Shown here: piece after piece, positions 2-14,501 of the stretch
How the letters are laid out: every line of letters starts with the position of its first letter
Numbering within the stretch: position 1 is the stretch's first letter
Virus record (IMG/VR): IMGVR_UViG_3300024335_000717
Coordinates: 1-32,317 of that record
DNA length: 32,317 bases
Source of the DNA: a virus
Reading direction: 5' to 3' (one strand)
Translations under genes and position numbers: made by a program
The notes under the pieces: generated by a model
The model's input: the letters and a program-made list of their open reading frames with translations, nothing else
Databases searched by the model: none
Told to the model about the DNA's origin: nothing

Positions 2-328
2 TGTTTCTTAAAAGGTATTTTAATGAAATGTAAAGATGTACCGCAATACCAAGAAGGCGTTCCATTTAAAGATGTATTTAAAACCTTTAAAGAAATTAAT
101 CAATTAGAATTAGTAAAACAAGCAGGTGTTAGACAACAATATGTAGACCAAGCAGTATCTTTAAATCTTGCTTTTCCTAAAGAAGCTACACCAAAATGGA
201 TTAACCAAGTTCATTTAGAAGCATGGAAACAAGGAATTAAAACCTTGTATTATATGAGAACTGAATCTGTGTTAAGAGGTGACATTGCTCAAAAGGCAAT
301 GGAAGACTGTATTAGCTGTGACGGATAA
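2..328 (+). CDS. nrdA: Ribonucleotide reductase class I large subunit, C-terminal part (partial at left edge)
   Basis: C-terminal end of the large (alpha) subunit of class Ia ribonucleotide reductase, which reduces ribonucleoside diphosphates to deoxyribonucleotides for phage DNA synthesis. The stretch from SLNLAFPKEAT through QGIKTLYYMRTES is the conserved end of the catalytic barrel, where the LYYMRT tyrosines lie on the radical-transfer route in this family. The protein ends in EDCISCDG; this CxxC pair matches the mobile C-terminal tail that re-reduces the active site. The frame is open upstream of the ATG at 23 to the window edge, so I read it as the 3' end of a longer gene rather than a separate 101-residue protein. 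The AAAAGG before that ATG could suggest a local start, but other genes here do not use Shine-Dalgarno sites. It lies 9 bases before kdsA. Confidence 0.88.
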   Translation, partial: CFLKGILMKCKDVPQYQEGVPFKDVFKTFKEINQLELVKQAGVRQQYVDQAVSLNLAFPKEATPKWINQVHLEAWKQGIKTLYYMRTESVLRGDIAQKAMEDCISCDG

Positions 329-1084: not shown

Positions 1085-2154
1085 ATTTAGCAAACATATT
1101 ATCAGAAAGTCTTAAATCTGAGAATAATGTTTATTTTCATATTGAGGATTTAGTTGAATGGTCTAAGAAGGTTATATCTAAAGGGCACGTTGAATATACT
1201 ACAAATAAAGAAGGTGAAGTAATTTCCTATGTAGCTTATTACAAAAACAAAGAAAGTTATTTTATTACAATGGTTTGGACTCACCCTGATTATAGAGGTA
1301 AAGGTCTTTCGAAAAAAATTATTAAAGATATTGTAAATTCTACCGAATTACCTATAGACTTAGAAGTTCATAAAGATAACCCTGCTTACAATTTATATAG
1401 GTTATTAAAATTTGAAACTATTGATTTTCGTGGTGATCAAATAATAATAATGAGAAGGTGTAAGAAGTTAGCTATAATGCAACCTTATATCTTTCCTTAT
1501 GTAGGTTACTTTAGTTTAATTAATTCATCTGATAAAATTTTATTTTATGATGATGTTAACTTTATTAAAAGAGGATGGATTCATAGGCAAAGAATTCTTA
1601 TAAACGGTAAGGATCATTTATTTACCATTCCTTTAAACAAACCATCACAGAATAAAAAGATAAATCAAATAGAAATATCTGAAAATGAAAGCAGGTTAAA
1701 AATCATAAAGAGTATTGAAGGTGCGTATAAAAAGGCACCATACTTTAAAGAAGTTTTTCCAATTATTGAAAAAGTTATATTAGGCAAGTATACTCATATT
1801 GATGAAATGGCTATATCTTCTTTAGTTGCAGTATGTAAATATTTAAACTTAGAGATTAATTATGATAGGACATCAAAGGCTGATCCTGGTTCTCAAGGTC
1901 AAGAAAAATGTGAAAGGTTAGCATCTATAACAAAAACATTAGGTTTTTCTAATTATGTAAATGTAATAAATGATATGTATGATAAGGAAACTTTTAAATC
2001 AAAGAATGTTAATTTATTTTTTAATGATCATAAAATAAAATCATACAACCAATTCGGTAAACCTTTCGTATCTCATCTATCAATTATTGATGTTTTAATG
2101 TTTAATTCAATAAGAGACACTAAGAAATTAATATTATCATATCATATCATTTAA
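1081..2154 (+). CDS. GNAT acetyltransferase-WbqC-like two-domain protein
   Basis: Two-domain protein of 357 residues. Residues about 1-123 read as a GNAT N-acyltransferase: HPDYRGKGLSKKIIKD is the acetyl-CoA pyrophosphate-binding signature (R/Q-x-x-G-x-G/A), followed by a typical C-terminal part containing NPAYNLYRLLKFE. Residues about 128-357 match the WbqC-like family found in O-antigen and capsule clusters, beginning LAIMQPYIFPYVGYFSLI and continuing with the DDVNFIKRGWIHRQRIL block. WbqC chemistry is not established as far as I know; the pairing suggests acylation of an amino-sugar or amino-acyl group on a glycan. It overlaps kdsA by 4 bases. An in-frame ATG at 1450 (Met124), after an A-rich stretch, lies at the domain junction and might yield the WbqC domain alone, but this is weak. 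Domain calls are fairly firm, function is inferred. Confidence 0.8.
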   Translation: MNLANILSESLKSENNVYFHIEDLVEWSKKVISKGHVEYTTNKEGEVISYVAYYKNKESYFITMVWTHPDYRGKGLSKKIIKDIVNSTELPIDLEVHKDNPAYNLYRLLKFETIDFRGDQIIIMRRCKKLAIMQPYIFPYVGYFSLINSSDKILFYDDVNFIKRGWIHRQRILINGKDHLFTIPLNKPSQNKKINQIEISENESRLKIIKSIEGAYKKAPYFKEVFPIIEKVILGKYTHIDEMAISSLVAVCKYLNLEINYDRTSKADPGSQGQEKCERLASITKTLGFSNYVNVINDMYDKETFKSKNVNLFFNDHKIKSYNQFGKPFVSHLSIIDVLMFNSIRDTKKLILSYHII

Positions 2155-2158
2155 TGAA

Positions 2159-2170
2159 TATATAATAAAA
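2159..2170 (+). promoter_or_regulatory. TATATAATAAAA box upstream of the GT2 gene
   Basis: AT-rich box TATATAATAAAA ending 13 bases before the start codon at 2184. It resembles the T4 late promoter core (TATAAATA) and similar boxes before other genes here. The upstream TTAAAC box seen at the replication genes is absent. The call rests on recurrence and position only. Confidence 0.4.
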
Positions 2171-2183
2171 TTAGAAAACCAAT

Positions 2184-3071
2184 ATGTTACAGTCATATGA
2201 TACTTACTTATTACTAGAATCTTTTATTGATGATAAAAACTTTGAAATCTTAAATGAAAAGAATCTCTCTAGCAAGATTAACAATGATATAAAATTTGCT
2301 GTAGTTATGCCAACTTATAAAATTAAGAGTGATGCAGGTGTACATAAGACAAGAGCAAATCATATGTCTTCGGTTGATGTTCTTAAGGATTCTTTAGGAT
2401 CTATTAAAAATCAAAAATTTAAAAATTGGAAATTATTTATAGTCGGTGATAAGTATGAAGAAGATCAAGAATTAAAAGATTTACTATCTTCTATGTTTAA
2501 GCCTGGTCAATATGAATATTTTAATTTACCTAAACCTGGTGAAAGAGAATCTAATATATCTTCAGAAGAAAAGAGATTAACCGGAGGAATTAAAGCAGTT
2601 AATAAAGGATTAGATATGGCAGCATCTGCAGGTTTTGATTATGTTACAAGATTAGATCATGATGACAAATGGGCACCTAATCATTTAGAGCTTTTAGCAA
2701 AAGCATATTCACAATTTCCTAACCTAGGATTTGTATTTACACAAGGTAAGAAAAAGATAGATGCTACTAATTCTTCTGGTGGTTATATGATGATGCCTGA
2801 TGCGACTCCTGAATTAGATATTAATAATAAAGGTTATGCAACTGGTCAAACCGCTGCTAGTTCCGTTTCATGGTGTCCTAAGCTAATAGGTAAATTTAAA
2901 TACCGAGATGCATCAGCACAAAAAGGAAGTGAACCAAAACAAAAGAAAACTATTGCTGGTGATGTTGACTTATTTCAACGAATGATGAAAGCAATAAAAG
3001 ACAAAGAACATAAATACATGTTTATACCTAAGATGACTGTATATCACAGAAACAGAAAAGGTAAATTTTAA
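2184..3071 (+). CDS. Glycosyltransferase family 2 (GT-A fold)
   Basis: Inverting GT-A glycosyltransferase of 295 residues, expected to move a sugar from a nucleotide-sugar donor to a glycan acceptor. After a roughly 35-residue N-terminal extension the GT2 pattern begins at FAVVMPTYKIKSD, followed by the LKDSLGSIKNQKFKNWKLFIVGD unit (donor-binding beta-alpha-beta). GGIKAVNKGLDMA comes before RLDHDDKW (156-163), whose Asp residues 158-161 are the DxD-type metal/nucleotide site. A C-terminal part with AGDVDLFQRMMKA fits the acceptor/catalytic-base region (ED/DxD-like). No membrane segment is visible, so it is probably a soluble cytoplasmic enzyme. Donor and acceptor cannot be predicted. Its leader carries a TATATAATAAAA box, so it may start its own transcript after the kdsA pair. 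Confidence 0.8.
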   Translation: MLQSYDTYLLLESFIDDKNFEILNEKNLSSKINNDIKFAVVMPTYKIKSDAGVHKTRANHMSSVDVLKDSLGSIKNQKFKNWKLFIVGDKYEEDQELKDLLSSMFKPGQYEYFNLPKPGERESNISSEEKRLTGGIKAVNKGLDMAASAGFDYVTRLDHDDKWAPNHLELLAKAYSQFPNLGFVFTQGKKKIDATNSSGGYMMMPDATPELDINNKGYATGQTAASSVSWCPKLIGKFKYRDASAQKGSEPKQKKTIAGDVDLFQRMMKAIKDKEHKYMFIPKMTVYHRNRKGKF

Positions 3072-3076
3072 GTGAA

Positions 3077-3088
3077 TATATATTAAAA
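3077..3088 (+). promoter_or_regulatory. TATATATTAAAA box upstream of the histone-like gene
   Basis: AT-rich box just after the GT2 stop codon, 18 bases before the start at 3107, of the same general type as other TATATAA boxes here. With the terminator at 3303 it would delimit a single-gene transcript for the H1-like protein. Supported by position and recurrence only. Confidence 0.35.
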
Positions 3089-3106
3089 CAATAAAAAATA
3101 ACTATT

Positions 3107-3283
3107 ATGGAAAAATTTGAAGAAATCAAAGCTCTTATTGAATCAGTAGGAGAAGACGTAGATAAATTCTATGTGAAGGGAAACAAGGCTGCAGCTGTTA
3201 GAATTAGAAAAGCAATGCAAGATGTTAAAAATTTAGCACAAGAAGTAAGACTACACGTCCAAGAGACAAAGAACAATATGTAA
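3107..3283 (+). CDS. Histone H1-like DNA-binding protein
   Basis: A 58-residue basic, helical protein starting MEKFEEIKALIESVGEDVDK. The core FYVKGNKAAAVRIRKAMQDV, followed by KNLAQEVR, matches the short histone H1-like (Hc1-type) proteins that many Bacteroidota encode. In that family an acidic N-terminal helix precedes a K/G-N-x-A-A-x-R-x-R-K-A-M-Q helix thought to bind DNA. The usual Lys/Ala-rich tail is missing; the protein ends QETKNNM. It has a TATATATT box upstream and a strong intrinsic terminator 20 bases downstream, so it is probably transcribed as a single gene. It could help package or protect phage DNA, or act on the host nucleoid; no role is shown. Its presence also supports a Bacteroidota host. 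Confidence 0.78.
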   Translation: MEKFEEIKALIESVGEDVDKFYVKGNKAAAVRIRKAMQDVKNLAQEVRLHVQETKNNM

Positions 3284-3302
3284 TTTTACATAACTTCTAT
3301 TT

Positions 3303-3336
3303 AAAAGGACTATCTTTAACTAGGTAGTCCTTTTTG
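3303..3336 (+). terminator. Intrinsic terminator after the histone-like gene
   Basis: Arms AAAAGGACTATCT (3303-3315) and AGGTAGTCCTTTT (3322-3334) pair over 13 base pairs with one G-U, around a 6-base loop, and run into a T tract. It separates the GT2/H1 block from the HAD operon. Confidence 0.85.
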
Positions 3337-3359
3337 TTTGTATAATGTCCTGTTATACT

Positions 3360-3394
3360 TGAAACTTTTTTAAAAACTTCTATATAATAATAAA
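3360..3394 (+). promoter_or_regulatory. Two-part promoter-like element before the HAD operon
   Basis: TGAAACTT box starting at 3360 and TATAATAATAAA starting at 3383, 23 bases apart. The same spacing occurs before the clamp, polymerase, uvsX and gene 55. The upstream box matches the TTAAAC consensus at five of six positions. It lies directly downstream of a terminator and 13 bases before the start codon at 3408, as expected for the promoter of the HAD-kinase-nucleotidyltransferase operon. Confidence 0.6.
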
Positions 3395-3407
3395 TCAAAC
3401 AGATTAT

Positions 3408-3959
3408 ATGGAAAGGTGCTTAATATTAGATTTTGACGATACTTTAGTTTCTACTATAGAAACCCACGCAGATTCATGGAGGCATGCACTAGAAAGAGTC
3501 TTAAACCGAGATATACCGCTAAGTACTATAATGGCGGATATTAATTATGGAATGGATGTTCTATTAAAAAAGTATCAATTATCAGAAAAGGAATCTGAAT
3601 TAGCACAAGATTATAAAAGAGAAATATTTTCTAAAAATCTTTATAAAACAAAAGTTAATCAATTACTATTATGGGTAATTAAAAATTCTCAATTTGATAA
3701 GGTTATTATAGCATCTAATTCTTCTAGAGAAAACGTAGATAGAATTATGGCTTATCATAATATTAATCATAATTTATTTGATCTAATTGTAACAAGAGAT
3801 AATGTTTTAAACAAAAAGCCACATTCTGATATGGCAGATTTAATATTTAAAACATTTCCTGAATATGAACCAACTGATTTTTTAATGGTTGGTGATTCAG
3901 AAGTAGATTCAACATTCGCACTTAAAAACAAAATGAAATGCATACTGGTAAAGTTTTAG
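3408..3959 (+). CDS. HAD-superfamily phosphatase
   Basis: Haloacid dehalogenase-type hydrolase of 183 residues, most likely a small-molecule phosphatase. Motif I is LDFDDTL (nucleophile Asp8, acid/base Asp10); motif II is IIASNSSR (Ser/Thr-type); the motif III lysine is in NKKPHSDM; motif IV is VGDSEVDS with the Mg-binding Asp. Helical sequence between motifs I and II is the small alpha-helical (C1) cap seen in phosphoglycolate-phosphatase-like enzymes. KdsC, which would act directly after KdsA, is capless and has a different motif I, so this is probably not KdsC. The gene overlaps the kinase gene by 22 bases and heads a coupled HAD, kinase, nucleotidyltransferase set. That set suggests a pathway making an activated (NDP-linked) building block. 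Confidence 0.85.
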   Translation: MERCLILDFDDTLVSTIETHADSWRHALERVLNRDIPLSTIMADINYGMDVLLKKYQLSEKESELAQDYKREIFSKNLYKTKVNQLLLWVIKNSQFDKVIIASNSSRENVDRIMAYHNINHNLFDLIVTRDNVLNKKPHSDMADLIFKTFPEYEPTDFLMVGDSEVDSTFALKNKMKCILVKF

Positions 3960-4684
3960 TAGGAAATAGTGGAGACAGAGTATATCTCCAGGATAACAAA
4001 GTTATCAAAGAAGCAGGTGTTTATCCTATAAAGTTTAAACAACAAATGGATTGGTTACAAAATTGTACTCATCCTAATTTTATAAAGATTAAGCCTATTT
4101 CAGATACCTCATTTGAAATGAAAAAGCATCCTACTTGGTATGATAAAATCTGTGAACAACCTTTGATTAAATCAATTGATCAATTAGACGATCTCATTCA
4201 TATAATAAATGACTTTGATGGTTATGGTGCTGATGTAGATGTAAGATCTTATTTAGATAAATTAGAAGGTAGGACTGGGTATAAATATGAAGGTGAATTA
4301 AATGCATCATCCGGTTGGGGATTTGTACATGGAGATTTAACGGTAAGTAATATCTTATATGATAATGATTTTATTTTTATTGACCCACGAGGTACTGAAG
4401 AACAGAATTATTATGATTATGGAAAACTGATGCAATCCTTTGTAATGAAATATGAGGCCCATATATACAATGAAAGGAATTCCAAATACCTTAAGTTCTG
4501 TAGAGAAGCAGAAAACATAATGTATGAATGGTACGATGAATATCAATTAAAATTCTTTTTAGCGGTCCACTTATTAGGTGCAGTGCCTTTCTTTGAATTA
4601 AATGAAAGATATGAATTAGCTGGTATGTTCCTTAAAAAAGGCCATGAATTATTTGACGAATTAGAAATTAAATATAGCAAATGA
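3938..4684 (+). CDS. APH/choline-kinase-type small-molecule kinase
   Basis: Protein of 248 residues with the phosphotransferase core of the aminoglycoside/choline kinase superfamily. FVHGDLTVSNIL (129-140) is the Brenner motif, with catalytic Asp133 and Asn138. FIDPRGT (147-153) carries the metal-binding Asp149, and YYDYGKLMQSF follows as in capsule-cluster members of this family. The N-terminal lobe is short: GNSGDRVYLQDNKVIKEAG looks like a reduced nucleotide loop with Lys24. It overlaps the HAD gene by 22 bases and the nucleotidyltransferase by 4 (ATGA), so the three are made together. Phosphorylation of a sugar, amino alcohol or polyol before nucleotide activation is a reasonable inference; the substrate is unknown. 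An antibiotic-resistance role is unlikely in this setting. Confidence 0.75.
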   Translation: MHTGKVLVGNSGDRVYLQDNKVIKEAGVYPIKFKQQMDWLQNCTHPNFIKIKPISDTSFEMKKHPTWYDKICEQPLIKSIDQLDDLIHIINDFDGYGADVDVRSYLDKLEGRTGYKYEGELNASSGWGFVHGDLTVSNILYDNDFIFIDPRGTEEQNYYDYGKLMQSFVMKYEAHIYNERNSKYLKFCREAENIMYEWYDEYQLKFFLAVHLLGAVPFFELNERYELAGMFLKKGHELFDELEIKYSK

Positions 4685-5388
4685 GCAGAGTAAGAAAAGC
4701 AATAATCTTAGCAGCCGGAAGGTCTACTAGGTATGGATCAAATAAACTTATAGATCCAATTTTAGGAAAATCAACAATTCAGTACTGTATTGAATTCTGT
4801 ATTGAGAATGGAATAGAGGATGCATATGTTACTATAAGCAAATCTGACTTCTTTTTTAAGAATAGGAATACAAAGTTATCTCATCCTATTATTGAAAGCT
4901 TATCTAAGTATAAAGAAAAGATAAACATTTGTTATGAATTCCAAAAAGATGATGAATATGGACCGGGAGCTGCAATTAAAGCATGGGAAGGTAAATTTTA
5001 TGAACCTTTCTTATGTCTCTTTGGTGACAATTATTATCAAGGTAATATTGGTTTAGAATACCATGATCCAAATAACACTGTTGTTACTTATAAAGATTAT
5101 GAAACTAGAGCAAGAAATTTACAACTTGCTACTATCCTAGAGGATGTAGTTATTGAAAAGCCTCATGGTGTAGTGAGCGGTAGATATTTTTGTGGATATA
5201 TGATATTTGGTAAAGAGGCTTTTGATAACTTAAGCAGTATTAAATTATCAAATAGAAATGAATATGAAATTACTCATCTTATAAACTCGATGGATAATTT
5301 GAAATTTGAAGAATTAAATATATGTTGGTATGATTTAACATACGAACAAGATAAACAAGTAATAGAAGATATTATTCAAAATTGTTAA
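4681..5388 (+). CDS. Sugar (or polyol) phosphate nucleotidyltransferase
   Basis: NTP-transferase family protein of 235 residues. AIILAAGRSTRYG (7-19) is the nucleotide-binding signature, followed by the conserved lysine in SNKLIDPILGKS. YGPGAAIKAWEG and LCLFGDNYYQGN give the base/sugar-binding region and a metal-binding Asp. The length fits single-domain sugar-1-phosphate nucleotidyltransferases or LicC/HddC-type enzymes and is shorter than RfbA-type enzymes (about 290). The N-terminus does not resemble KdsB, so I do not assign CMP-Kdo synthesis. Coupled to the kinase upstream (ATGA), it would activate the kinase or phosphatase product for a neighbouring glycosyltransferase. The next gene begins one base after its stop. 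Confidence 0.85.
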   Translation: MSRVRKAIILAAGRSTRYGSNKLIDPILGKSTIQYCIEFCIENGIEDAYVTISKSDFFFKNRNTKLSHPIIESLSKYKEKINICYEFQKDDEYGPGAAIKAWEGKFYEPFLCLFGDNYYQGNIGLEYHDPNNTVVTYKDYETRARNLQLATILEDVVIEKPHGVVSGRYFCGYMIFGKEAFDNLSSIKLSNRNEYEITHLINSMDNLKFEELNICWYDLTYEQDKQVIEDIIQNC

Positions 5389-5389
5389 T

Positions 5390-6655
5390 ATGAAAGAGAA
5401 TGTAAAAAAGATTGGTTTTTTTAAATTAGGTAAAGCCATAAAGTTTAACGAAAACAGTTGGAGTGCAATCGGTGGAGATTGTGAACCTAAGCAATTAATT
5501 TGCTCAATTGCAAACCGAAACCCTAATATTGAATATTGGTTATTAAGCCCAAATGATTTAGGTAAGTTTAGAGCAAAACAAAAACCTAAAGTAGCTTCAT
5601 TATTTGGACCTCCACCTACTGATGATCCAATAGTTCCTAATAATATTAAGGAGTTTCATTCAACTATGAAAGAGAGAAAGTCTACGGATGAAACTGTTGA
5701 AATTATTCAAGGTTTAGATTTAGATTTTATTTTCTTTTATACTGGTCCAACAAGTACCGTTAATATTCCAGAATATATTAATAAGAAAGATGGTACTGGT
5801 CAAGTTAAATCATTAGACTTCTTTAAGTATTATGCAGCTCCTATTATTAAATCGATGAATGAGTTGGAAAAGAAAGTTCCTATTGTAGGTTTACTTGTTG
5901 ATAACCGATACGTTCTTGCATGTAAGGATTGGGGAATTAATAATAGACCAACTTATTACTTGGCACAAAATACCTTTACTAAAGAAGAGCAATATTTCTG
6001 CAATCCACCACTAAGAGATGTTAAGACTATTACATCAACTTATGAATATTCCGGTATTGAAACAGTATTCTTATTAGATAAGAAAAGATATAATACCGAT
6101 GAATTATTTAAAATGAAGAAGACTGATTCATTTATGATGCTACAGAATCAAGGTAAAGGATCAGGTGGAATGGACCGATGGGATCCAGTAAAAGAGTACA
6201 TTGTAGATCAAAATATTGAAACTGATATTTATGGAAAATGGGACGATGAGATTAAGGAAAAATATCCTAAATGGTTTAAAGGTGAAACCAGGATTGAAAC
6301 AATGACTGATGAACTACTCAGTACCAAATATACATTCTGTGTTCCTATTAAAGAAGGTATGGTCACTTCTAAATATGCGGAAATGTTGCATTATGGTATA
6401 ATACCTTTCTTACACCCATCTTACGACACTGACTTTAATGTGTTTCCTGAAGGTCACTTCATTAGATGTAAATCACCAGAAGATCTTAAAAAGAAAATTG
6501 AATTCTTAAATGCAAACCCAGAGCATTATAAGAAATTATTTTACAATCTCCAAGAAAAGTATCTTAAAGATTCTTATTATACCGGAGAACATGTAGATAA
6601 CAAAATCTGGGAAGCTTATGAACTTGTAACAAAAACTGAAACAATAAATGTATAA
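5390..6655 (+). CDS. Putative GT-B-type glycosyltransferase
   Basis: Protein of 421 residues with no family I can name firmly. The N-terminal half has a Rossmann-like arrangement (KKIGFFKLGKAIKF; later LDFIFFYTGPTST and VPIVGLLVDNRY). The C-terminal half contains LLSTKYTFCVPIKEGMVTSK, EMLHYGIIPFLHPSYDTD and HFIRCKSPEDLKKKIEFL. This is the donor-site layout of GT-B glycosyltransferases (E-x-L-x-x-G-x-x-P-x-x), ending in the usual C-terminal helix that crosses back. It lies directly after the nucleotidyltransferase and overlaps the epimerase by 8 bases, so it plausibly uses their nucleotide sugar. The acceptor could be a surface glycan, a virion protein or modified DNA, given the methyltransferase two genes downstream. 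The fold call is moderate, the acceptor is open. Confidence 0.55.
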   Translation: MKENVKKIGFFKLGKAIKFNENSWSAIGGDCEPKQLICSIANRNPNIEYWLLSPNDLGKFRAKQKPKVASLFGPPPTDDPIVPNNIKEFHSTMKERKSTDETVEIIQGLDLDFIFFYTGPTSTVNIPEYINKKDGTGQVKSLDFFKYYAAPIIKSMNELEKKVPIVGLLVDNRYVLACKDWGINNRPTYYLAQNTFTKEEQYFCNPPLRDVKTITSTYEYSGIETVFLLDKKRYNTDELFKMKKTDSFMMLQNQGKGSGGMDRWDPVKEYIVDQNIETDIYGKWDDEIKEKYPKWFKGETRIETMTDELLSTKYTFCVPIKEGMVTSKYAEMLHYGIIPFLHPSYDTDFNVFPEGHFIRCKSPEDLKKKIEFLNANPEHYKKLFYNLQEKYLKDSYYTGEHVDNKIWEAYELVTKTETINV

Positions 6656-7670
6656 TTCCGAAACAAAAATCCTAGTCACCGGTGGTGCTGGGTTCGTTGG
6701 TACAAATTTTATTAACGATTTATTAAATAGAGGTCATAACCCTAAATGTATTGCCGTTATTGACAATATGGAACACGGTACTTATATACCAAAGGTACAT
6801 GACCAAATAGAAAATTTTCATAAAGTAGATATTAGAAATCAATATGTAGAAAACATTATTCAAGAATTTTCTCCTGATTATGTTTATCACTTTGCAGGTT
6901 TAGTTTCTATTTATGACTGTCATGAAGATCCGTATGAAGCTGTTGATAATAATATTCTAGGAAGTATTAATGTAATGAATGGCTGTGTAAAGGCTAATGT
7001 AAAAAGAATCATTTTTAGCGAAACTTCTGCTGTGTATGAAAACTGTGAAATGCCAGAAGCTGGGTTTAATGAAACACAATCAGATCCTACTACAATTTAT
7101 TCTACAACAAAAGCATGCTTGGCATTATTAGCAGAATCATATCAGAGAACCAAAGGATTAAATTATACTGCATTAAGATACTTTAATGTTGCTGGGCCAC
7201 TGCAGGATTATAATAGAACTATACCTCCAGTGTTTGCCGGATTTATTTTAAGAATTAAAGGTAATCATAACCCTATTGTGTTTGGTGATTATATGAAGGC
7301 GAGAGATTATATTGATGTATCTGATGTTAATGCATTTCATATTCTTTGTATGGAAAATGAAGACACTGCAAACCAAACTTTTAATTTAGGAACTGGAAAA
7401 ATGACAAATTTAATGGATCTTAAAAATATGATTGGGGAAATCATGGAAGTAGGTGAAGTACCTTTTGATCATTATGATCCAATTGCAGGTGAAGCTCTAA
7501 ATATCAGAGGAGATATTTCTAAAGCTAAATCAATGGGATGGGAACCTAAAAAAGATATTAGAGATACTATTAAAGAAACTATTGTTTACTTAGAAGAAGA
7601 GATTAAACAAGGTACAATTGATCCTCTAACATTTATGGAAGATTTAGAAATTGAAAAAGTAAAAATATAA
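6648..7670 (+). CDS. NAD-dependent nucleotide-sugar epimerase/dehydratase (GalE-like SDR)
   Basis: Extended short-chain dehydrogenase/reductase of 340 residues acting on nucleotide sugars. TGGAGFVGTN (11-20) is the GxxGxxG NAD-binding loop; the VIDNMEHG acidic region at the end of beta 2 selects NAD(H). HFAGLVSIYD holds the conserved H-x-A-G/A, SETSAVY (124-130) supplies the catalytic Ser/Thr, and YSTTK (151-155) the catalytic Tyr and Lys. ALRYFNVAGP and the later YIDVSDVNAF block fit UDP-glucose 4-epimerase-like enzymes. Length matches GalE (about 338). A short acidic C-terminal extension follows the usual end. Exact substrate and stereochemistry (4-epimerase versus 4,6-dehydratase) cannot be read with certainty. 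It sits 2 bases before the methyltransferase, in the same operon. Confidence 0.9.
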   Translation: MYNSETKILVTGGAGFVGTNFINDLLNRGHNPKCIAVIDNMEHGTYIPKVHDQIENFHKVDIRNQYVENIIQEFSPDYVYHFAGLVSIYDCHEDPYEAVDNNILGSINVMNGCVKANVKRIIFSETSAVYENCEMPEAGFNETQSDPTTIYSTTKACLALLAESYQRTKGLNYTALRYFNVAGPLQDYNRTIPPVFAGFILRIKGNHNPIVFGDYMKARDYIDVSDVNAFHILCMENEDTANQTFNLGTGKMTNLMDLKNMIGEIMEVGEVPFDHYDPIAGEALNIRGDISKAKSMGWEPKKDIRDTIKETIVYLEEEIKQGTIDPLTFMEDLEIEKVKI

Positions 7671-7672
7671 AT

Positions 7673-8935
7673 ATGGAAAAAGAGTTAAAATGGGGTACTA
7701 TAATTCCACTTATTGGAGGTAGTGCAATAGGATGTAAAAAATCTGCAGGTAATGAGCCGGCATTTCATTTAAGTTATGATGCATTTGCCGCTAATGAAAG
7801 TCATATTGAAAAGTATTGGCCAGAAGTACCTATGTATAGATTAGACCACGAAGACTTAGATATACCTAAACAAACTTTTAATGAAGTTGACTATGTAAAT
7901 TCAGTATGTCCTTGTGCAGGTTTATCACAATTAAATTCTGCGAAAGGTAGTGCTGCATCTCGAGGATCTGGTGCAACACAGAATCAATGGATGTATAATT
8001 CATCAGAGTATATTTTAGAAAATGTAAAGCCTAAAGTTCTTTGGGGTGAAAATGCGCCTGGTCTTTTTACTAAGATGGGAGAAGGTGTAGTTGATAGATT
8101 AAAAGCTATTGGTGAAAAATACGGATATAGTTTTTCGTTAATTAAAACTAATACTGAATTGCATGGAATACCACAAAGAAGAATGAGAACCTTTTATTTC
8201 TTTTGGAATACTCCAACAGTTCCTATGTTAAGTTGGAAGTTTAGAGAAAAGAAAAATCTTATTGATTATCTTAATGAAATACCAGAAGATGCTACTCATC
8301 AAGATATGTTTATGGTTGAAGGAAAGGTTACAGACCATTTTAAACCTTATGAATATGTTTTAGAAAAAGAAGGTTTAACTCATTCTGAATTTGCTGCTAA
8401 ATTTAAGAAAGGTACTATTGCTCAATATTTAGAAAAAAATGAATTAATACCTGACTGTATTAAGTGGTTAGAGAAGCATTATCCAAAAAGAGGATTTTCA
8501 AATAAAAAATCTACCAAGACCTTTATTGATATGTTAGAACATCAGCAATATAAAACAAGCCAAGGGTTAGGATATTGGGATGCATCACCACACTTCTTTC
8601 ATGATTCCTTTTCTGCTCTTATTGGTAGAAACATGTTTAACGGAGTTCATCCTATAGAAAATAGATACCTCAATGTAAGAGAGATGCTGCACTTAATGGG
8701 ACTACCACTAGACTTCGGTATTGAAAATCCAAAACAAGTAAATCATATTGCACAAAATGTACCAGTGACTACTGCGATGGATATGGCTGATGAAGTAAAG
8801 AAGTTTTGTAGAGGAGAAGCTAAGATGACTAATTATACTTTTCTAAAGCAAGACAATACGAATCATAAAATTATTGACTCCACTGAAATTGGAACAGAAC
8901 CTAAAAAGAAGTATAAAGTAAAAAGTATAATTTAA
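7673..8935 (+). CDS. DNA (cytosine-5) methyltransferase with variant PCA motif
   Basis: C5-cytosine methyltransferase of 420 residues that would transfer a methyl group (or related one-carbon unit) to DNA cytosine. Motif I is degenerate (PLIGGSAIGC, 12-21). SVCPCAGLS (77-85) is motif IV with the catalytic Cys81, but the usual PCQ reads PCA. VLWGENAPG (122-130) is motif VI (Glu126-Asn127), and GIPQRRMR (165-172) is motif VIII (QxRxR). After a roughly 120-residue variable region, YLNVREMLHLMGLP and HIAQNVPVTTAMDM are motifs IX and X. No restriction enzyme is adjacent, so it is an orphan or self-protecting enzyme. It is embedded between an epimerase and a GT8-like gene, which makes a DNA hypermodification pathway a possibility. 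Target sequence unknown. Confidence 0.85.
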   Translation: MEKELKWGTIIPLIGGSAIGCKKSAGNEPAFHLSYDAFAANESHIEKYWPEVPMYRLDHEDLDIPKQTFNEVDYVNSVCPCAGLSQLNSAKGSAASRGSGATQNQWMYNSSEYILENVKPKVLWGENAPGLFTKMGEGVVDRLKAIGEKYGYSFSLIKTNTELHGIPQRRMRTFYFFWNTPTVPMLSWKFREKKNLIDYLNEIPEDATHQDMFMVEGKVTDHFKPYEYVLEKEGLTHSEFAAKFKKGTIAQYLEKNELIPDCIKWLEKHYPKRGFSNKKSTKTFIDMLEHQQYKTSQGLGYWDASPHFFHDSFSALIGRNMFNGVHPIENRYLNVREMLHLMGLPLDFGIENPKQVNHIAQNVPVTTAMDMADEVKKFCRGEAKMTNYTFLKQDNTNHKIIDSTEIGTEPKKKYKVKSII

Positions 8936-8946
8936 TTTTAATAACT

Positions 8947-9963
8947 ATGAAAGATAATGCGTTAGCGATAGGAGTATCAAGCCTTGAATTTACAAACATC
9001 CTATGTAGCTATTACCCTAAAGGTATAAAAGAAAACTTTGATATTTACCTATTTGTAGATGATAGCAAAATAGATTTGGATAAACTTAAAGGTATCTTTA
9101 AAGAACATGATTTAGACATTTTTAAAAATGCAAAAATTATTATTTTAAATGACCTCTATGATTACTATATAGAAAAACATGGATATGAAGGTAAGGCAAA
9201 AGAATTCTTATTAAGCCATGGTTGCTTATTTAAAATCTTAATGCCTATTTATCTAAAAGAAAAATTTGGAGTTAAGAGAACTCTTGTGTCCGATGACGAT
9301 GTGTTTATTTTAAATGACATTAGCTATATGTGGGAGGAGTATGAAGAGTTCGGTATTAAAAAGGAAAATTTATTTTATATTAGAAATAAAGATAAGCATG
9401 AAGTAGTGGCTGCCTTCAATGAAATATTTGAATCAAATTTTACTTTAGAAGAATTAAATGCACTTTCAATAAATGCAGGAAATATAATTTATGGAGAAGA
9501 TCCTAAACTAGAATATTACTTTGAAAGATTTATGAAGCATTCCTTTATTCATCATCAGTATTTTAATTTTACTGGATATACCAGCTGGACCGTAGAACAA
9601 AGATTCCATCATTTCAATATACATAGGTATTTAGCAGAAGGTAGAAAAGTTAAATTTACAGAAAGTAAAGACTTGAGGCTAATGCAAAATAGAGATAAGA
9701 TGATGAAGGCTGGTACTCCACCTGACAAATACCTTAAAGTAGTTGTACCATCAATTATTCATTATGCAATAGGAACTAAAAAAGCATTATGGCTCAATGA
9801 TTTTTTACCTGGTCTTGAATGGAGGTATGGGTTTGTCTATGAAGCTAAATATGAATTAAAAGATATTCTATATAATAAAGATTGGGTTCCACCTTCATTT
9901 AAGAGTGTACAAAAAACCGGATTCAACTTAGAATCAGATTTTACAACTAAGTCTGTATTTTAG
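8947..9963 (+). CDS. GT8-like glycosyltransferase
   Basis: Protein of 338 residues resembling retaining GT-A enzymes of family 8. RTLVSDDDVFIL (111-122) holds the DxD metal site (Asp116-118) after an alpha/beta N-terminus. LSINAGNIIYGED matches the N-A/S-G segment that shapes the donor site. SIIHYAIGTKKALWL (269-283) matches the C-terminal H-x-x-G-x-x-K-x-W motif of GT8 enzymes. The end of the protein has a short tail, FKSVQKTGFNLES (318-330), which recurs almost intact in the WavE-like protein at 10779-11717 although the two proteins are otherwise unrelated. It follows the methyltransferase by 11 bases. No signal peptide or membrane segment is evident. Sugar specificity is not predictable. 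Confidence 0.68.
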   Translation: MKDNALAIGVSSLEFTNILCSYYPKGIKENFDIYLFVDDSKIDLDKLKGIFKEHDLDIFKNAKIIILNDLYDYYIEKHGYEGKAKEFLLSHGCLFKILMPIYLKEKFGVKRTLVSDDDVFILNDISYMWEEYEEFGIKKENLFYIRNKDKHEVVAAFNEIFESNFTLEELNALSINAGNIIYGEDPKLEYYFERFMKHSFIHHQYFNFTGYTSWTVEQRFHHFNIHRYLAEGRKVKFTESKDLRLMQNRDKMMKAGTPPDKYLKVVVPSIIHYAIGTKKALWLNDFLPGLEWRYGFVYEAKYELKDILYNKDWVPPSFKSVQKTGFNLESDFTTKSVF

Positions 9964-9964
9964 C

Positions 9965-9999
9965 TTAAACTAAGTAACAATAATCAATATAATAATAAA
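9965..9999 (+). promoter_or_regulatory. Two-part promoter-like element before the clamp gene
   Basis: TTAAACTAAGTA at 9965 and TATAATAATAAA at 9988, separated by 23 bases start to start, 15 bases before the clamp start codon. This is the best match to the element shared with the polymerase, uvsX, gp41, HAD and gene 55 leaders. Confidence 0.65.
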
Positions 10000-10014
10000 C
10001 AAATAAATTTTTAA

Positions 10015-10764
10015 ATGGAAACAACTATTAACAAAATTGACGGTTATGAACTAAGTTCATTCGTTCGCAAATTACTTCCAATTGACAAATTCATCTTTAT
10101 GAAAATAGCAAAAGAAGGTACAGTATCTTCAGTGTATTTTCCAGAGAGAGATGCTGTAAAATTGGTTAACACCCCAACTTCTGATATCTTTGACGCTGAT
10201 ATTAAAGAACCAGTAAAAGTAAGTTTTTACAATGGTAGTAAAGTTATTGATGCATTAAGCCATTTTAATGGTGATGTAAAAGGTCGCATTAAGTATACTG
10301 AATACGATGGAGAATTAATGGCAAGTGATTTTATTTTAGAAAATGAAGATCTACAAATTAATTTGGCATGTACCGATCCTTCATTATCATTTATGGAAAT
10401 GAGTAAAGAAGAAACTGATAGAGCATTCGGTACTGATTCTAAAATGTTTGATTTTGATTTACTTACAACTCATGTAGATAAAATGAAATCATTATTTAAC
10501 CTTGATAAAGACGAAGATATCTTTACTCTTTATATTGGAGAAAAAGGAATTAATATTAAAGGTACATCTTATGACGCTACATTATGTCATTCTTATGATT
10601 CAAATGTAGAAAAAGGTGCAAAGGTTGTTATTTATAAAAAGTATATTAATCTTTTAGATAAGGAAAATTATAAAGTAAGTGTTTGTGAAAATAAAGTAGT
10701 ATTTAAATCTCTTGATACTAATACACACTTAACTGTTGCTGTTGCTATAACAGACGAAGATTAA
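10015..10764 (+). CDS. 45: Sliding clamp (gp45-like DNA polymerase processivity factor)
   Basis: Protein of 249 residues read as the trimeric ring clamp that tethers the phage polymerase and, in T4, also activates late transcription with gp55/gp33. Primary-sequence identity to T4 gp45 is low, but the order of elements fits. An N-terminal domain ends near residue 120, followed by FDFDLLTTHVDKMKSLFNL with DIFTLYIGEKGINIKG, as in the second clamp domain. The closing strands KENYKVSVCENKVVF and THLTVAVAIT match the T4 pattern of a Gly/Glu-N-Y-K-hydrophobic strand and a final VVALEAD-like strand. It is slightly longer than T4 gp45 (228). Position next to the polymerase fragment and a replication-type promoter element support the call. 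The remaining doubt is the low identity. Confidence 0.75.
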   Translation: METTINKIDGYELSSFVRKLLPIDKFIFMKIAKEGTVSSVYFPERDAVKLVNTPTSDIFDADIKEPVKVSFYNGSKVIDALSHFNGDVKGRIKYTEYDGELMASDFILENEDLQINLACTDPSLSFMEMSKEETDRAFGTDSKMFDFDLLTTHVDKMKSLFNLDKDEDIFTLYIGEKGINIKGTSYDATLCHSYDSNVEKGAKVVIYKKYINLLDKENYKVSVCENKVVFKSLDTNTHLTVAVAITDED

Positions 10765-10778
10765 ATACTATTGTGTTG

Positions 10779-11717
10779 ATGGAAAAAATTGACATTGTAT
10801 TACAAGGTCCATATAATGATTATGTTGATGAGATTGCCTTACATTACTTATCATTAAGCTTTGTCAATAATATAATTATTTCTCATCACACCTCCGATAC
10901 TAAAGAAAGATTAATTCATAAACAGATAAAATTCATTGCTACCGATAAAGTTAAACCTATCGGTAGCGGTAATGAAAATCTGCAAATTATATCTTCTTTG
11001 GCAGGCGTAAAGGCTGCAACTACAGATTTTGTTGTAAAAATGAGAAATGATCAAAAGTATACTTTGGATTCTATGAAGGCTATGTATGACTTTTATAATC
11101 AAAACTCTGATAAAGAAGTTTCTTTTTTAGATGATTCATCTAAGCCATGTAATAGAATCTGTGTAGCTGGTAATTTTTCTCATTTACCATTTCATCCTAG
11201 AGATCATATTTTTTGGGGTAATAAAAATGACTTAATTGATTTATTCAGTTTACCTTTAGATGAATATGATATCTATCAAAGACTAGATAATCGTGATGAT
11301 GATATAGTTGATGTTATTAATAAGAAAGGTGTTGATTGGATTTTAACTGATCCTATACATCCACCTTCCGAAATGGTAAAAAAGCACAACATCTCATGGA
11401 TATTTTATGAACAACCACCAGAAGAAAATTATAGTATGCCGTTAATAAGAACTGAGACAAGGATAGCTTTAAATTATATAGCTAAATTTGATCCAACGGT
11501 AAATGCATTTTTATCTAACCCTAAAGAATATGTACATGATGGTGCTCCTAATTATTATGAAGCATTAAACATAAGTAATGATTTAACACCTAAGGTTTTT
11601 AAATCCTTTCCAAAAACCGGTATTGATTTATCATGTCCAAATAATAATTGGAGTAATTACCCATACGATCAACAATACAATCAATACGGAGAAAGATGGC
11701 ATGAAGATAATGTTTAA
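10779..11717 (+). CDS. WavE-like lipopolysaccharide biosynthesis protein
   Basis: Protein of 312 residues matching the WavE family, named from the Vibrio LPS core cluster and probably glycosyltransferase-like. The N-terminus IDIVLQGPYND gives the family's V-x-Q-G-P opening. GSGNENLQIISSLAGVKAA, followed by TTDFVVKMRNDQ, matches the diagnostic N-x-N-x-Q-I-x-S-x-x-x-G-L-x-x-A block and its K-x-R-x-D end, in which the Asp may bind metal. I chose ATG 10779 over GTG 10773 and TTG 10776 because homologous sequence begins with MEKIDIV. The C-terminal tail FKSFPKTGIDLSC (274-286) nearly repeats the tail of the GT8-like protein. The gene sits between two replication genes, so it travels in the same transcript region but presumably acts in glycan assembly. 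Confidence 0.75.
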   Translation: MEKIDIVLQGPYNDYVDEIALHYLSLSFVNNIIISHHTSDTKERLIHKQIKFIATDKVKPIGSGNENLQIISSLAGVKAATTDFVVKMRNDQKYTLDSMKAMYDFYNQNSDKEVSFLDDSSKPCNRICVAGNFSHLPFHPRDHIFWGNKNDLIDLFSLPLDEYDIYQRLDNRDDDIVDVINKKGVDWILTDPIHPPSEMVKKHNISWIFYEQPPEENYSMPLIRTETRIALNYIAKFDPTVNAFLSNPKEYVHDGAPNYYEALNISNDLTPKVFKSFPKTGIDLSCPNNNWSNYPYDQQYNQYGERWHEDNV

Positions 11718-11749
11718 ACTAAGTATAACTTTACCATATAAAAAATAAA
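11714..11749 (+). promoter_or_regulatory. Two-part promoter-like element before the polymerase C-half
   Basis: TTAAACTAAGTA at 11714 (overlapping the stop of the preceding gene) and TATAAAAAATAAA at 11737, 23 bases apart. Between them TATAACTTTACCA is nearly repeated in the gp41 leader, so the two leaders share about 35 bases. Confidence 0.65.
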
Positions 11750-11751
11750 AA

Positions 11752-12870
11752 ATGACAGAGGAATTACAAAAAATTAACGAGGAGGCTTCAAAATTTTACA
11801 ATTATGAACAGGCTGTAAAATTAATGCTTAACTCTATTTATGGTGCATTTGGTAATCCTTACTTTTATTTCTTCAATGTTGATATTGCAGAAACCATTAC
11901 TCTCCAAGGTAAAGATGCAATTCTTTACACTGAAGATTTAGTTAACAAATATTTTAAAGAATATTGGCATAAAGATAAATCAGCTCATGAAGCTATGGGA
12001 ATAACCGTAACTGGTAAAATTGAAAAACCTGTTGGTATTTATATTGATACAGATTCAGTATATGTAAAGTTTGAGGAACTGATTAAAAAATGCGAGGGGT
12101 GGGAAGGCGATGAAAAAGAATTCATTTTAAAGCTATATGAAGTAAGACTTAAATCTTATATAGAAAAAATTCTACAAGTTTATGCTGATAATAATAATGC
12201 AGAAAACTTTTTATCATTTGAATTAGAAAGTATTGCCAAGAATGCAATATGGTTGGCTAAGAAAAAATACATGCAGAATATTGTTTGGAAGGATCCGGAT
12301 ATTCATTATGATGATCTTTCTAAAATTAGTTCTAAAGGATTTGAAATTATACAGTCATCTACTCCAATTTTTGCTAGAGAAAAACTAAAGGAATTACTAA
12401 CATACATATTCTCGGTTAGCGAATTAGACATGGGAGACTTTGCTGCATTACTTAAAGATATAAAAAGACAATTTAGATTAGCAAATGTTGATCAAATCTG
12501 TTTCTCACGAAAGGTAAATAATTATCAAAAGTATATTGTGAATGATTATGAAAATTTTGAAATTGCATCTAAATGCCCAATCGGTGTAAGATCTGCAGGT
12601 TATCATAATTACCTTTTAAATAATTCTGGACTTAAAGGAAAATATCAACCGTTAGGAAATGGTGAAAAATGTAAAATGTATTTTTCAAATGATACTTCAT
12701 GTGATGTATTTGCATTTGCCCCAGGTGATTATCCTTATGAATTTGCGCCTAAGATTGATTATGATAGGCAATTTGAAAAAACTATATTAGATCCAATTAA
12801 CCGAGTTGTAACTGCAATGGGTTTTAAAGGATTTAATAGAAACTTGATTTACACAACAAGTTTATTTTAA
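11752..12870 (+). CDS. 43: Family B DNA polymerase, C-terminal half (split gp43)
   Basis: C-terminal portion of the T4-like replicative DNA polymerase, 372 residues. It begins just before motif B (KLMLNSIYG, 23-31) and contains motif C (YIDTDS, 97-102; catalytic Asp99 and Asp101). A palm/thumb region follows with AKKKYMQNIVW (KKRY-like) and KGFEIIQSSTP. It ends LIYTTSLF, like the clamp-binding C-terminus of gp43 (SLDFLF). T4 gp43 has 898 residues; this matches roughly its last 350. The 3'-5' exonuclease domain and palm motif A are absent, and the sequence just upstream is an unrelated gene. It has its own ATG and promoter-like leader, so it is a genuine split polymerase rather than a frameshift. 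The N-terminal half must be encoded outside this window. The two parts presumably assemble. Confidence 0.95.
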   Translation: MTEELQKINEEASKFYNYEQAVKLMLNSIYGAFGNPYFYFFNVDIAETITLQGKDAILYTEDLVNKYFKEYWHKDKSAHEAMGITVTGKIEKPVGIYIDTDSVYVKFEELIKKCEGWEGDEKEFILKLYEVRLKSYIEKILQVYADNNNAENFLSFELESIAKNAIWLAKKKYMQNIVWKDPDIHYDDLSKISSKGFEIIQSSTPIFAREKLKELLTYIFSVSELDMGDFAALLKDIKRQFRLANVDQICFSRKVNNYQKYIVNDYENFEIASKCPIGVRSAGYHNYLLNNSGLKGKYQPLGNGEKCKMYFSNDTSCDVFAFAPGDYPYEFAPKIDYDRQFEKTILDPINRVVTAMGFKGFNRNLIYTTSLF

Positions 12871-12884
12871 AATAAAAATTAAAT

Positions 12885-14501
12885 ATGGAGAAGAGATTAG
12901 AAAATCTAAAAGAACAAACAAAGATTATAAATATATGTAAACTTGCATTACAATCTGGTGGTGATATAAGACCTTTAGTTATTCCATCTCATGAAACTGG
13001 TGGCGATGGTTTAACAAACGGAAACATCATTAACGTTGACGGTAAATGGCTATTAAATATTAGAAGAGTTGCATATGCACTATTTCATTCAGAAAAAGAT
13101 CAAAAGTTCCCTTCACCCTGGGGGCCTTTGGTGTATTTTAATCCTGAGGATGATATAACTCTAAGAACTACAAATTACATTTGCGAACTTAACACTGACA
13201 ACTTAACTATGACAAGTTGGAATAAGGTTGATACTAGTAAATTAGACGTAACTCCTATTTGGGAATTTATAGGTCTTGAAGATGTTAGGTTAGCTCATTG
13301 GGATAACACTCTATACCAAACTGGAGTACGTAGAGATACTACACCTAATGGTGAAGGTCGGATGGAACTATCCACGGTTAAAAAATCAGGATGCTGTAAT
13401 TGGAAAGAAACGCAGCGACAAAGAATATCTACACCTGATGGCAAATCTAATGCCGAAGGGGGATCTTATTGTGAAAAGAATTGGATGCCTATTAATGATT
13501 TACCATATCATTACGTTAAATGGACTAACCCAACAGAGGTGGTTAAGACTAATCCTAATGATGGTACAACTGAAATTGTTGCTATGAATACCAACCCTGG
13601 GTTTGATACACCAAGAGATATGCGGGGATCATCTAATGTAATTAGGTATAAAAACATGTGGGTTGCTATAATTCATGAATGTGATCTTTGGTATGACATA
13701 GATGAAAAGAAAGATGCTGTATACCATCACAGAATTGTTTGCTGGGATGATAATTGGAATATCATAAAAATGAGTGATACTTTTAATTTTATGACAGGGC
13801 AAGTTGAATTTACATGCGGTATAGGATTAGAAGACGGTAATTTTTTAATACCGTTCGGCTTCCAAGATCATTCTTCATACATCTTAAAGCTACCAACATC
13901 AGTATTCGATTTTTTAATTGGCGGTTATATGCCCGAGGAAACAGTAGTCACATACAAAGAAAATGCTATTACAAACTTTATAAATGATCCTCATAATGGA
14001 TTAACTGCATTTAATTTAGCCGAGTGGTATTTTAGTAAAGGCCAGTGTTCTTCTGCATTAGGGTTTTATTCCAGGGCTGCTGAATATTCAACTGATGAAA
14101 ATATAATTTACCAAGCAGTATATCAAATGGCCAATTGTTTATCCGGCCTAGGACGGCGAGATAATGCCGAAGAATTAATGTGGATGAAAACTATTGAACA
14201 TGATCCTGAAAGACCGGAAGCTTATTTGGCATTATCAAGATGGTATTCATGGAGAAATCAACCAAATAAAGCATATTATTTTGCAAGCATAGGAATGAAA
14301 GCTAAAAAGAAAGGATTACCTATGACTGAACATTCATCGTATTCTGATAAAGATTTAGAATTTCAATACATTCTGTTTTCAAGTTATGATGGAAAGTATG
14401 ATGCTAAGTTTAAATTGCTACAGGATTCGGTTAATCAAGGGGCAGACTATCCATGGCTTTCATACCACGCAGACAAATGGAATATTAAAAAGAATATTTA
14501 A
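12885..14501 (+). CDS. Beta-propeller (GH130/GH43-like) protein with C-terminal TPR repeats
   Basis: Protein of 538 residues in two parts. Residues about 30-360 look like a five-bladed beta-propeller of the GH43/GH130 glycosidase-phosphorylase type. IGLEDVRLAHWDNTLYQTGV resembles the G-x-E-D-P-R segment of that fold, and the later blocks are NVIRYKNMWVAIIHECDLWY, TGQVEFTCGIGLEDGNFLIP and FGFQDHSSYI. Residues about 370-500 contain TPR-like helical pairs (GLTAFNLAEWYFSKGQCSSA, IIYQAVYQMANCLSGLGRRD, PEAYLALSRWYSWRNQPNKA). A Pro is lacking in the GxED(P)R motif (GLEDVR), so catalysis is uncertain. It could be a glycan-processing enzyme or a glycosyltransferase-associated protein. It lies between the polymerase fragment and uvsX, 14 bases after the former. 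Fold calls are inference; I do not know its substrate. Confidence 0.5.
   Translation: MEKRLENLKEQTKIINICKLALQSGGDIRPLVIPSHETGGDGLTNGNIINVDGKWLLNIRRVAYALFHSEKDQKFPSPWGPLVYFNPEDDITLRTTNYICELNTDNLTMTSWNKVDTSKLDVTPIWEFIGLEDVRLAHWDNTLYQTGVRRDTTPNGEGRMELSTVKKSGCCNWKETQRQRISTPDGKSNAEGGSYCEKNWMPINDLPYHYVKWTNPTEVVKTNPNDGTTEIVAMNTNPGFDTPRDMRGSSNVIRYKNMWVAIIHECDLWYDIDEKKDAVYHHRIVCWDDNWNIIKMSDTFNFMTGQVEFTCGIGLEDGNFLIPFGFQDHSSYILKLPTSVFDFLIGGYMPEETVVTYKENAITNFINDPHNGLTAFNLAEWYFSKGQCSSALGFYSRAAEYSTDENIIYQAVYQMANCLSGLGRRDNAEELMWMKTIEHDPERPEAYLALSRWYSWRNQPNKAYYFASIGMKAKKKGLPMTEHSSYSDKDLEFQYILFSSYDGKYDAKFKLLQDSVNQGADYPWLSYHADKWNIKKNI

What the first reader, a model, noticed from the sequence alone, without database searches (positions are those of the whole stretch)
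11752..12870. Replicative DNA polymerase split just before motif B
The C-half contains motifs B and C with its own start codon and promoter-like leader, while the exonuclease and motif A half is not in this window. The upstream gene is an unrelated WavE-like gene. The split falls between motifs A and B, so the active site must be rebuilt from two proteins. Splits of gp43 are known in some T4-like phages, usually tied to homing endonucleases; here no endonuclease is next to it, and carbohydrate genes occupy both sides.
Basis: partly seen in the sequence, partly recalled or inferred. Interest (0 to 1): 0.68.

Follow-up and report, generated by a model that had tools for sequence, protein, structure and literature searches.

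The report
Half of a split phage DNA polymerase
The gene really does encode only the back half of a virus's DNA-copying enzyme; the front half sits a few thousand bases away in close relatives, and this kind of split, already known in some T4-like phages, turns out to be a fixed trait of a large family of big phages.

Summary
Observation confirmed. ORF 11752-12870 (372 aa) is a stand-alone C-half of a T4-type family B polymerase (motifs B and C), with its own start, an in-frame stop just upstream, strong purifying selection (dN/dS 0.02-0.07) and 78 related loci. The missing N-half (471 aa: exonuclease, motif A) was found in close relatives beside nrdB/nrdA, 14-17 kb upstream on the same strand; in this phage it should lie about 2.5-4 kb left of the window edge. 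No examined record has a full-length copy, including a complete 541-kb Lak phage. The cut is at the fingers tip (N-halves end near T4 505, C-half resumes near 534), so the two catalytic aspartates are on different proteins and the enzyme most likely works as a non-covalent heterodimer. No intein or intron is at this cut. Homing endonucleases touch the cut ends in several relatives; the window phage has probably lost one. The kind is known: Aeromonas phages 25 and 44RR, and annotated in PAU, PTm1, pT24, MA9V-1. New here: halves 100 kb or more apart on opposite strands in huge phages, the same loop cut at least three times independently, and a second cut by a split intein at motif C in some relatives.

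The parts
11752..12870 (+). C-half of T4-type family B DNA polymerase (gp43B equivalent): second fingers helix, motif B, motif C palm, thumb, C-terminal tail
   Evidence: PF00136, phrog_1918, phrog_262; aligns with RB69 gp43 560-813 and T4 gp43 543-815; Foldseek best matches all RB69/T4 gp43
11755..11838 (+). aa 2-29, predicted single helix that runs into motif B; equivalent of the second fingers helix, so the cut is in the fingertip loop before it
   Evidence: AlphaFold model, overall pLDDT 68 and low after aa 17; alignment of 15 C-halves with intact polymerases
11818..11844 (+). motif B KLMLNSIYG
   Evidence: K23, N27, S28, Y30 and G31 invariant in 42 C-halves
12040..12057 (+). motif C YIDTDS (catalytic Asp); the site cut by a split intein in some relatives
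   Evidence: Y97, D99, T100, D101, S102 invariant; split intein in L123-L125
12259..12270 (+). KKKY (KxY-type motif of family B polymerases)
   Evidence: K170-Y173 invariant
12841..12867 (+). C-terminal tail NLIYTTSLF, conserved; position of the clamp-binding tail of gp43 (function inferred only)
   Evidence: inference from T4/44RR tails
11718..11751 (+). 34-base A/T-rich intergenic leader of the C-half gene, no Shine-Dalgarno
10015..10764 (+). conserved 249-aa gene that precedes the C-half in most relatives and in PTm1, pT24, PAU and MA9V-1; clamp-like by position, homology to gp45 not shown
   Evidence: negative:
10773..11717 (+). WavE-like gene immediately upstream; missing from most relatives at this place
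   Evidence: PF07507
14544..15740 (+). UvsX-like recombinase; follows gene 43 in cyanophage ACG-2014e and phiAS5, and directly follows 43C in part of the relatives
   Evidence: phrog_97
2..328 (+). 3' end of nrdA; in relative L112 the N-half gene ends 1.1 kb before nrdA starts, which places the missing N-half at about -3944 to -2529
   Evidence: L112: N-half 1587-3002, nrdB 3068-4063, nrdA 4057-5859

Best explanation
Shown: this phage lineage encodes its T4-type replicative polymerase as two separate proteins. The N-half (about 470 aa: N-terminal and exonuclease domains, palm with motif A, first fingers helix) and the C-half (372 aa: second fingers helix, motif B, motif C palm, thumb, tail) meet at the tip of the fingers. 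Inferred: the two chains assemble without covalent joining, pairing the two fingers helices and the palm interface. This brings the motif A aspartate (N-half) and the motif C aspartate (C-half) into one active site, as reported for gp43A/gp43B of Aeromonas phage 25. Inferred origin: a homing endonuclease inserted into this permissive loop in an ancestor, freed the two ends as independent genes, and was later lost in the window's lineage. The halves then drifted apart as nucleotide-metabolism and carbohydrate genes accumulated between them.
For: C-half in 78 loci at 41-98% identity. N-half on the same contig in 31 of 43 records, with no full-length copy in any. Of the 12 records with one match, 11 end before the expected place of the N-half, and the twelfth is a 42%-identity relative. 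Motifs: N-half DIE, NYIKFD, YNVID, DFASLYPSI; C-half KLMLNSIYG, YIDTDS. N-half aligns with RB69 102-495 and C-half with RB69 560-813. The ends of all halves fall in one fingertip loop. dN/dS 0.02-0.07 for the C-half, 0.10 for one N-half pair. Co-purification and activity of split gp43 of phage 25: review PMC2988022. Homing-endonuclease-type genes touching the cut ends: after 43N in LR756500 (DUF7487 + REase) and Lak-A2 (DUF7487 remnants); before 43C in PTm1 (DUF7487), L054 (NUMOD3 + weak HNH) and L056 (four NUMOD3 motifs); a small gene between the halves in henriette and a GIY-YIG gene in phage 25. No intein signs at this cut in any half; no Rfam intron in the window or six related regions.
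Against: No direct evidence of assembly or activity for this lineage. The window phage's own N-half is off the contig and is inferred from relatives, the nearest with a 98%-identical C-half. The endonuclease origin is circumstantial: the genes next to the cut belong to different families and could have arrived after the split. The C-half model is of moderate confidence and the N-half model is unusable. The henriette gene between the halves has no significant endonuclease match in Pfam; I read it as HNH/NUMOD-like by eye.
Confidence: 0.9

Rival explanations
1. The halves are covalently joined after expression, by a split intein or by RNA trans-splicing at the fingers cut.
For: Relatives L123, L124, LR756500, Lak-A2 and PTm1 have a split intein elsewhere in the same polymerase, at motif C. 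Phage 25 has an intron in 43B.
Against: N-halves end about 35 aa after the conserved fingers helix start and C-halves begin 25-40 aa before motif B, with no intein block at either end. No Rfam intron family in the window or six related regions.
Confidence: 0.03
2. The C-half is a remnant or a protein with another job, and replication uses a different polymerase.
For: The window alone shows only the C-half.
Against: All catalytic motifs are invariant in 42 C-halves; dN/dS 0.02-0.07; N-half present with exo and motif A residues; no second family B polymerase of full length in records of up to 735 kb.
Confidence: 0.03
3. Assembly artefact near 11740.
For: The record is a metagenomic contig of 32 kb.
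Against: The same start and stop recur in more than 70 contigs from many samples, with different genes upstream.
Confidence: 0.01
4. The split did not come from a homing endonuclease but from tandem duplication and reciprocal loss, or another rearrangement, endonucleases coming later.
For: L122 has the permuted order C-half then N-half, 13 bp apart. The neighbouring endonucleases are of different families.
Against: Cut ends with abutting endonucleases in several deep branches (LR756500, Lak-A2, PTm1) and a gene between the halves in two independent lineages (phage 25, henriette).
Confidence: 0.25

Closest known systems
Split gene 43 (43A/43B) of Aeromonas phages 44RR2.8t and 25
   Same: T4-type family B polymerase cut in the same fingers-tip loop into a ~498-aa N-half and, in 44RR, a 391-aa C-half, each with its own start and stop; halves of phage 25 reported to co-purify and be active (PMC2988022)
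   Different: There the halves are adjacent, separated by an untranslated spacer (44RR) or a seg-type endonuclease (25). Here they are 14-17 kb apart with no endonuclease at the cut. The trees show separate origins.
Split PolB genes annotated in Sphingomonas phage PAU, Tenacibaculum phages PTm1 and pT24, Chryseobacterium phage MA9V-1
   Same: Same cut, same order N-half ... conserved 250-300-aa gene ... C-half; same clade as the window in both trees
   Different: Halves 1.2-2.4 kb apart; PTm1 has a DUF7487 gene at the fingers cut and a further split intein with a VSR endonuclease at motif C
Lak megaphages and uncultured huge phages LR745206, LR756501, LR756502, LR756504
   Same: Same fingers cut, same clade
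   Different: Halves 100-280 kb apart (about 620 kb on the linear LR756501 record) and on opposite strands; Lak-A2 also split at motif C by a split intein. I found no mention of the fingers split in the Lak paper searched (PMC8346664).
PolB split intein of jumbo phage MIJ3 ('fractured gene' type, PMC6892783, citing Dassa et al. 2009)
   Same: Same motif C intein site (block A SVDGST.., end VHN/S) as in relatives L123, L124 and LR756500
   Different: A separate cut, joined by protein splicing; absent from the window phage, whose motif C is uninterrupted
Split minimal DNA polymerase III of group 2.2 jumbo phages (PMC7824862)
   Same: Replicative-type polymerase carried as two proteins from distant genes
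   Different: Unrelated polymerase family; that paper lists these phages as having a classic family B polymerase, and the passages found mention no family B split

Membership tests
T4-type family B replicative DNA polymerase (gp43) | Palm motifs A, B and C present | tested here: met
   B and C in the window; A in the N-half of relatives
T4-type family B replicative DNA polymerase (gp43) | 3'-5' exonuclease domain | tested here: met
   In the N-half of relatives: PF03104 E 2e-14, DIE/NYIKFD/YNVID; the window's own N-half is off the contig
T4-type family B replicative DNA polymerase (gp43) | Single polypeptide of 830-1000 aa | tested here: not met
   Two chains of about 471 and 372 aa
Split gp43 (43A/43B) polymerase | Cut in the fingertip between motifs A and B with both fingers helices kept | tested here: met
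   Alignment of N- and C-halves with T4, cyanophage and Aeromonas proteins
Split gp43 (43A/43B) polymerase | Both halves encoded in the same genome and no intact copy | tested here: met
   31 of 43 records carry both, none an intact copy; also five huge-phage records
Split gp43 (43A/43B) polymerase | Halves adjacent, with a spacer or homing endonuclease between | tested here: not met
   14-17 kb apart in the nearest relatives, no endonuclease at the cut in the window
Split gp43 (43A/43B) polymerase | Halves associate and have polymerase activity | not testable with these tools
   Reported for phage 25 only (PMC2988022)
Fractured gene with split intein | Intein N and C fragments at the two cut ends | tested here: not met
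   No intein sequence at the fingers cut; met only at motif C in L123-L125

The most novel reading that the evidence does not exclude
The two-chain polymerase is not just tolerated but used. In a large clade of big phages the exonuclease/motif A subunit is made with the ribonucleotide reductase genes, and the motif B/C subunit with the conserved pre-43C gene and UvsX. Active polymerase would then form only when both operons are expressed, and the N-half could act on its own as an exonuclease.
Probability: 0.1. Interest if true: 0.7.

Novelty: new member of a known kind. Interest (0 to 1): 0.42.

Why it matters
A replicative polymerase whose two catalytic metal-binding aspartates come from different genes, kept apart over deep evolutionary distance, shows that the fingertip of family B polymerases is a natural and repeatedly used break point. 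It gives ready-made, separable halves for asking how polymerase assembly is controlled. It also warns that annotation of huge phages can miss or double-count the polymerase when it comes in two or three pieces.

Tried and rejected
Assembly artefact: rejected by more than 70 independent contigs. Intein or split intein at the fingers cut: none. Group I/II intron trans-splicing: no Rfam hit in 127 kb. Single origin of all split gp43 genes: rejected, AU p 1e-18 on N-halves and 2e-60 on C-halves. Whether the intact Flavobacterium phage MaF61 polymerase is ancestral or re-fused: not resolved (one clade without it not rejected, p 0.09 and 0.34). ORF 10015-10764 as gp45 sliding clamp: not supported, although it is homologous to the gene before 43C in PTm1, PAU, pT24 and MA9V-1. 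N-half structure model: pLDDT 44, discarded. A dN/dS value for L048 was discarded because the sequences were compared without gaps. The genome-contig scan gave only nine relatives at 29-33% identity and no host clue.

Full report
WHAT IS THERE. ORF 11752-12870 (+) encodes 372 aa that match only the second half of T4-type family B polymerases: PF00136 positions 145-388 of 453 (E 2e-19), phrog_262 positions 498-840 of 856 (E 4e-63), and phrog_1918, a 382-aa C-half family (E 3e-66). Motif B (KLMLNSIYG) and motif C (YIDTDS) are intact, and their key residues are invariant in 42 C-halves. An in-frame stop at 11746 precedes the ATG. Nothing resembling the N-half is in the window. The record is a 32-kb virus contig with T4-type genes (UvsX, gp41, gp46/47, gp55-like sigma, gp2, gp4, gp20, gp21, gp23).

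NOT AN ARTEFACT. A scan of IMG/VR gave 78 distinct loci with the same stand-alone gene at 41-98% identity. In 71 of them the ORF starts 25-40 aa before the conserved N[S/G]xYG, with different genes upstream. dN/dS against close relatives is 0.02-0.07.

THE MISSING HALF. A profile search of 43 records behind these loci found the N-half on the same contig in 31, and a full-length polymerase in none. Of the 12 records with a single match, 11 end before the place where the N-half is expected, and the twelfth is a 42%-identity relative. In the closest relative (L112; C-half 98% identical) the N-half is a 471-aa gene followed by nrdB and nrdA, and 14.2 kb separate the two halves. The window begins inside nrdA, so its own N-half should lie about 2.5-3.9 kb to the left of base 1 (inference). 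The N-half carries DIE, NYIKFD, YNVID and DFASLYPSI and aligns with RB69 gp43 102-495; the C-half aligns with RB69 560-813 and with T4 543-815. The metal-binding aspartates of motifs A and C are therefore on different polypeptides.

WHERE THE CUT IS. Aligned with intact polymerases (T4, Mosig, ACG-2014e, MaF61, Atu_ph04), all N-halves end just after the first fingers helix (about T4 503-511, leaving aside stray alignment ends) and all C-halves start just before the second, at about T4 534 for the window protein. The missing stretch is the fingertip loop, which is also short in cyanophage enzymes. The predicted C-half model (pLDDT 68) has one helix from aa 2 to 29 running into motif B. Its best structural matches are all RB69/T4 gp43 (E 2.6e-9 and weaker), with high rmsd, so the match supports the family and not the detailed fold. 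The N-half model was too poor to use.

HOW IT MOST LIKELY WORKS. The halves most likely pair non-covalently. The precedent is gp43A/gp43B of Aeromonas phage 25, which co-purify and are active according to the review PMC2988022. There is no intein at this cut and no known intron family nearby.

HOW IT AROSE. In the window's clade the C-half often follows a conserved 250-aa gene (window 10015-10764). The same order is seen in PTm1, pT24, PAU and MA9V-1, where the two halves are only 1.2-2.4 kb apart. In the L059/L062 group they are 4-5 kb apart; in the window group 14-17 kb, with nrdB/nrdA and carbohydrate genes in between. In Lak-A2 and four uncultured huge phages they are 100 kb or more apart and on opposite strands. 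In L122 the order is reversed, C-half then N-half, 13 bp apart. Endonuclease-type genes abut the cut ends in several relatives: DUF7487/REase after 43N in LR756500, DUF7487 remnants after 43N in Lak-A2 and DUF7487 before 43C in PTm1, and NUMOD3 genes before 43C in L054 and L056. In two independent lineages a gene lies between the halves: henriette and phage 25, GIY-YIG. This supports insertion by homing endonucleases followed by loss and dispersal, but does not prove it.

HOW OFTEN. Trees of the N-halves and of the C-halves place the Aeromonas phages beside T4 and henriette near the T4/cyanophage group, and the rest in one well-supported branch that holds only one intact polymerase, that of MaF61. 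Forcing all split enzymes together is rejected (AU p 1e-18 and 2e-60). The same loop was therefore most likely cut at least three times. Whether MaF61 is an ancestral or a re-fused form is not settled.

A SECOND CUT IN RELATIVES. In L123, L124 and LR756500 the C-half is cut again at motif C (IDTD/S) by a split intein: intein_Nterm and intein_Cterm models exceed their cut-offs on separate ORFs of L124, and intein_Nterm in L123; LR756500 shows the same sequence. In L124 and LR756500 an endonuclease-like ORF lies between the intein parts. Lak-A2 and PTm1 show the same arrangement. This is the known MIJ3-type PolB split intein (PMC6892783). In these phages the polymerase is encoded in three pieces, two of which should be spliced into one chain.

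NOVELTY. The split itself is known, and isolates of the same clade are annotated as carrying it. The window adds a member, in which the halves are far apart and the endonuclease is gone. The clade-wide, deeply conserved and sometimes distant arrangement, and the repeated use of one loop, were not described in the papers I could search, but most subscription papers, including the key study cited in PMC2993671 (Petrov, Ratnayaka and Karam 2010), were not readable here.

Noticed in passing
L123:1624-3367, L124:15735-18576, L125:1784-5184 (LR756500), L131:11893-14044 (Lak-A2), L154:11522-14328 (PTm1): The C-half is cut a second time at motif C (IDTD/S) by a split intein, with endonuclease-like ORFs between the parts in L124, LR756500 and PTm1: a polymerase encoded in three pieces.
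   Followed up: partly
window 10015-10764: Conserved 249-aa gene that precedes the polymerase C-half across the clade, including cultured Bacteroidota phages; looks like a diverged sliding clamp by position, but no profile or sequence comparison shows it.
   Followed up: partly
window, all 30 predicted start codons: No Shine-Dalgarno-like motif within 18 bases of any start. Together with relatives infecting Chryseobacterium, Tenacibaculum and Prevotella this suggests a Bacteroidota host.
   Followed up: partly
window 3382, 9987, 14520, 16040, 23601 (also a variant at 11739): Recurrent ATATAAWAATAAA element shortly upstream of start codons, more often than expected by chance (8 matches with one mismatch allowed, 1.8 expected); may be a promoter for the gp55-like sigma factor encoded at 23629-23994.
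   Followed up: no
L119:17-2573, - strand: UvsX gene broken into two parts with a 324-aa ORF between, another possible fractured gene.
   Followed up: no
L122:3942-6759: Polymerase halves in permuted order (C-half then N-half, 13 bp apart), which could come from tandem duplication and reciprocal loss.
   Followed up: no
window 1081-11717 and 12885-14501: Variable island of sugar-nucleotide, glycosyltransferase-like and WavE-like genes between nrdA and the replication genes; its content differs between close relatives.
   Followed up: no
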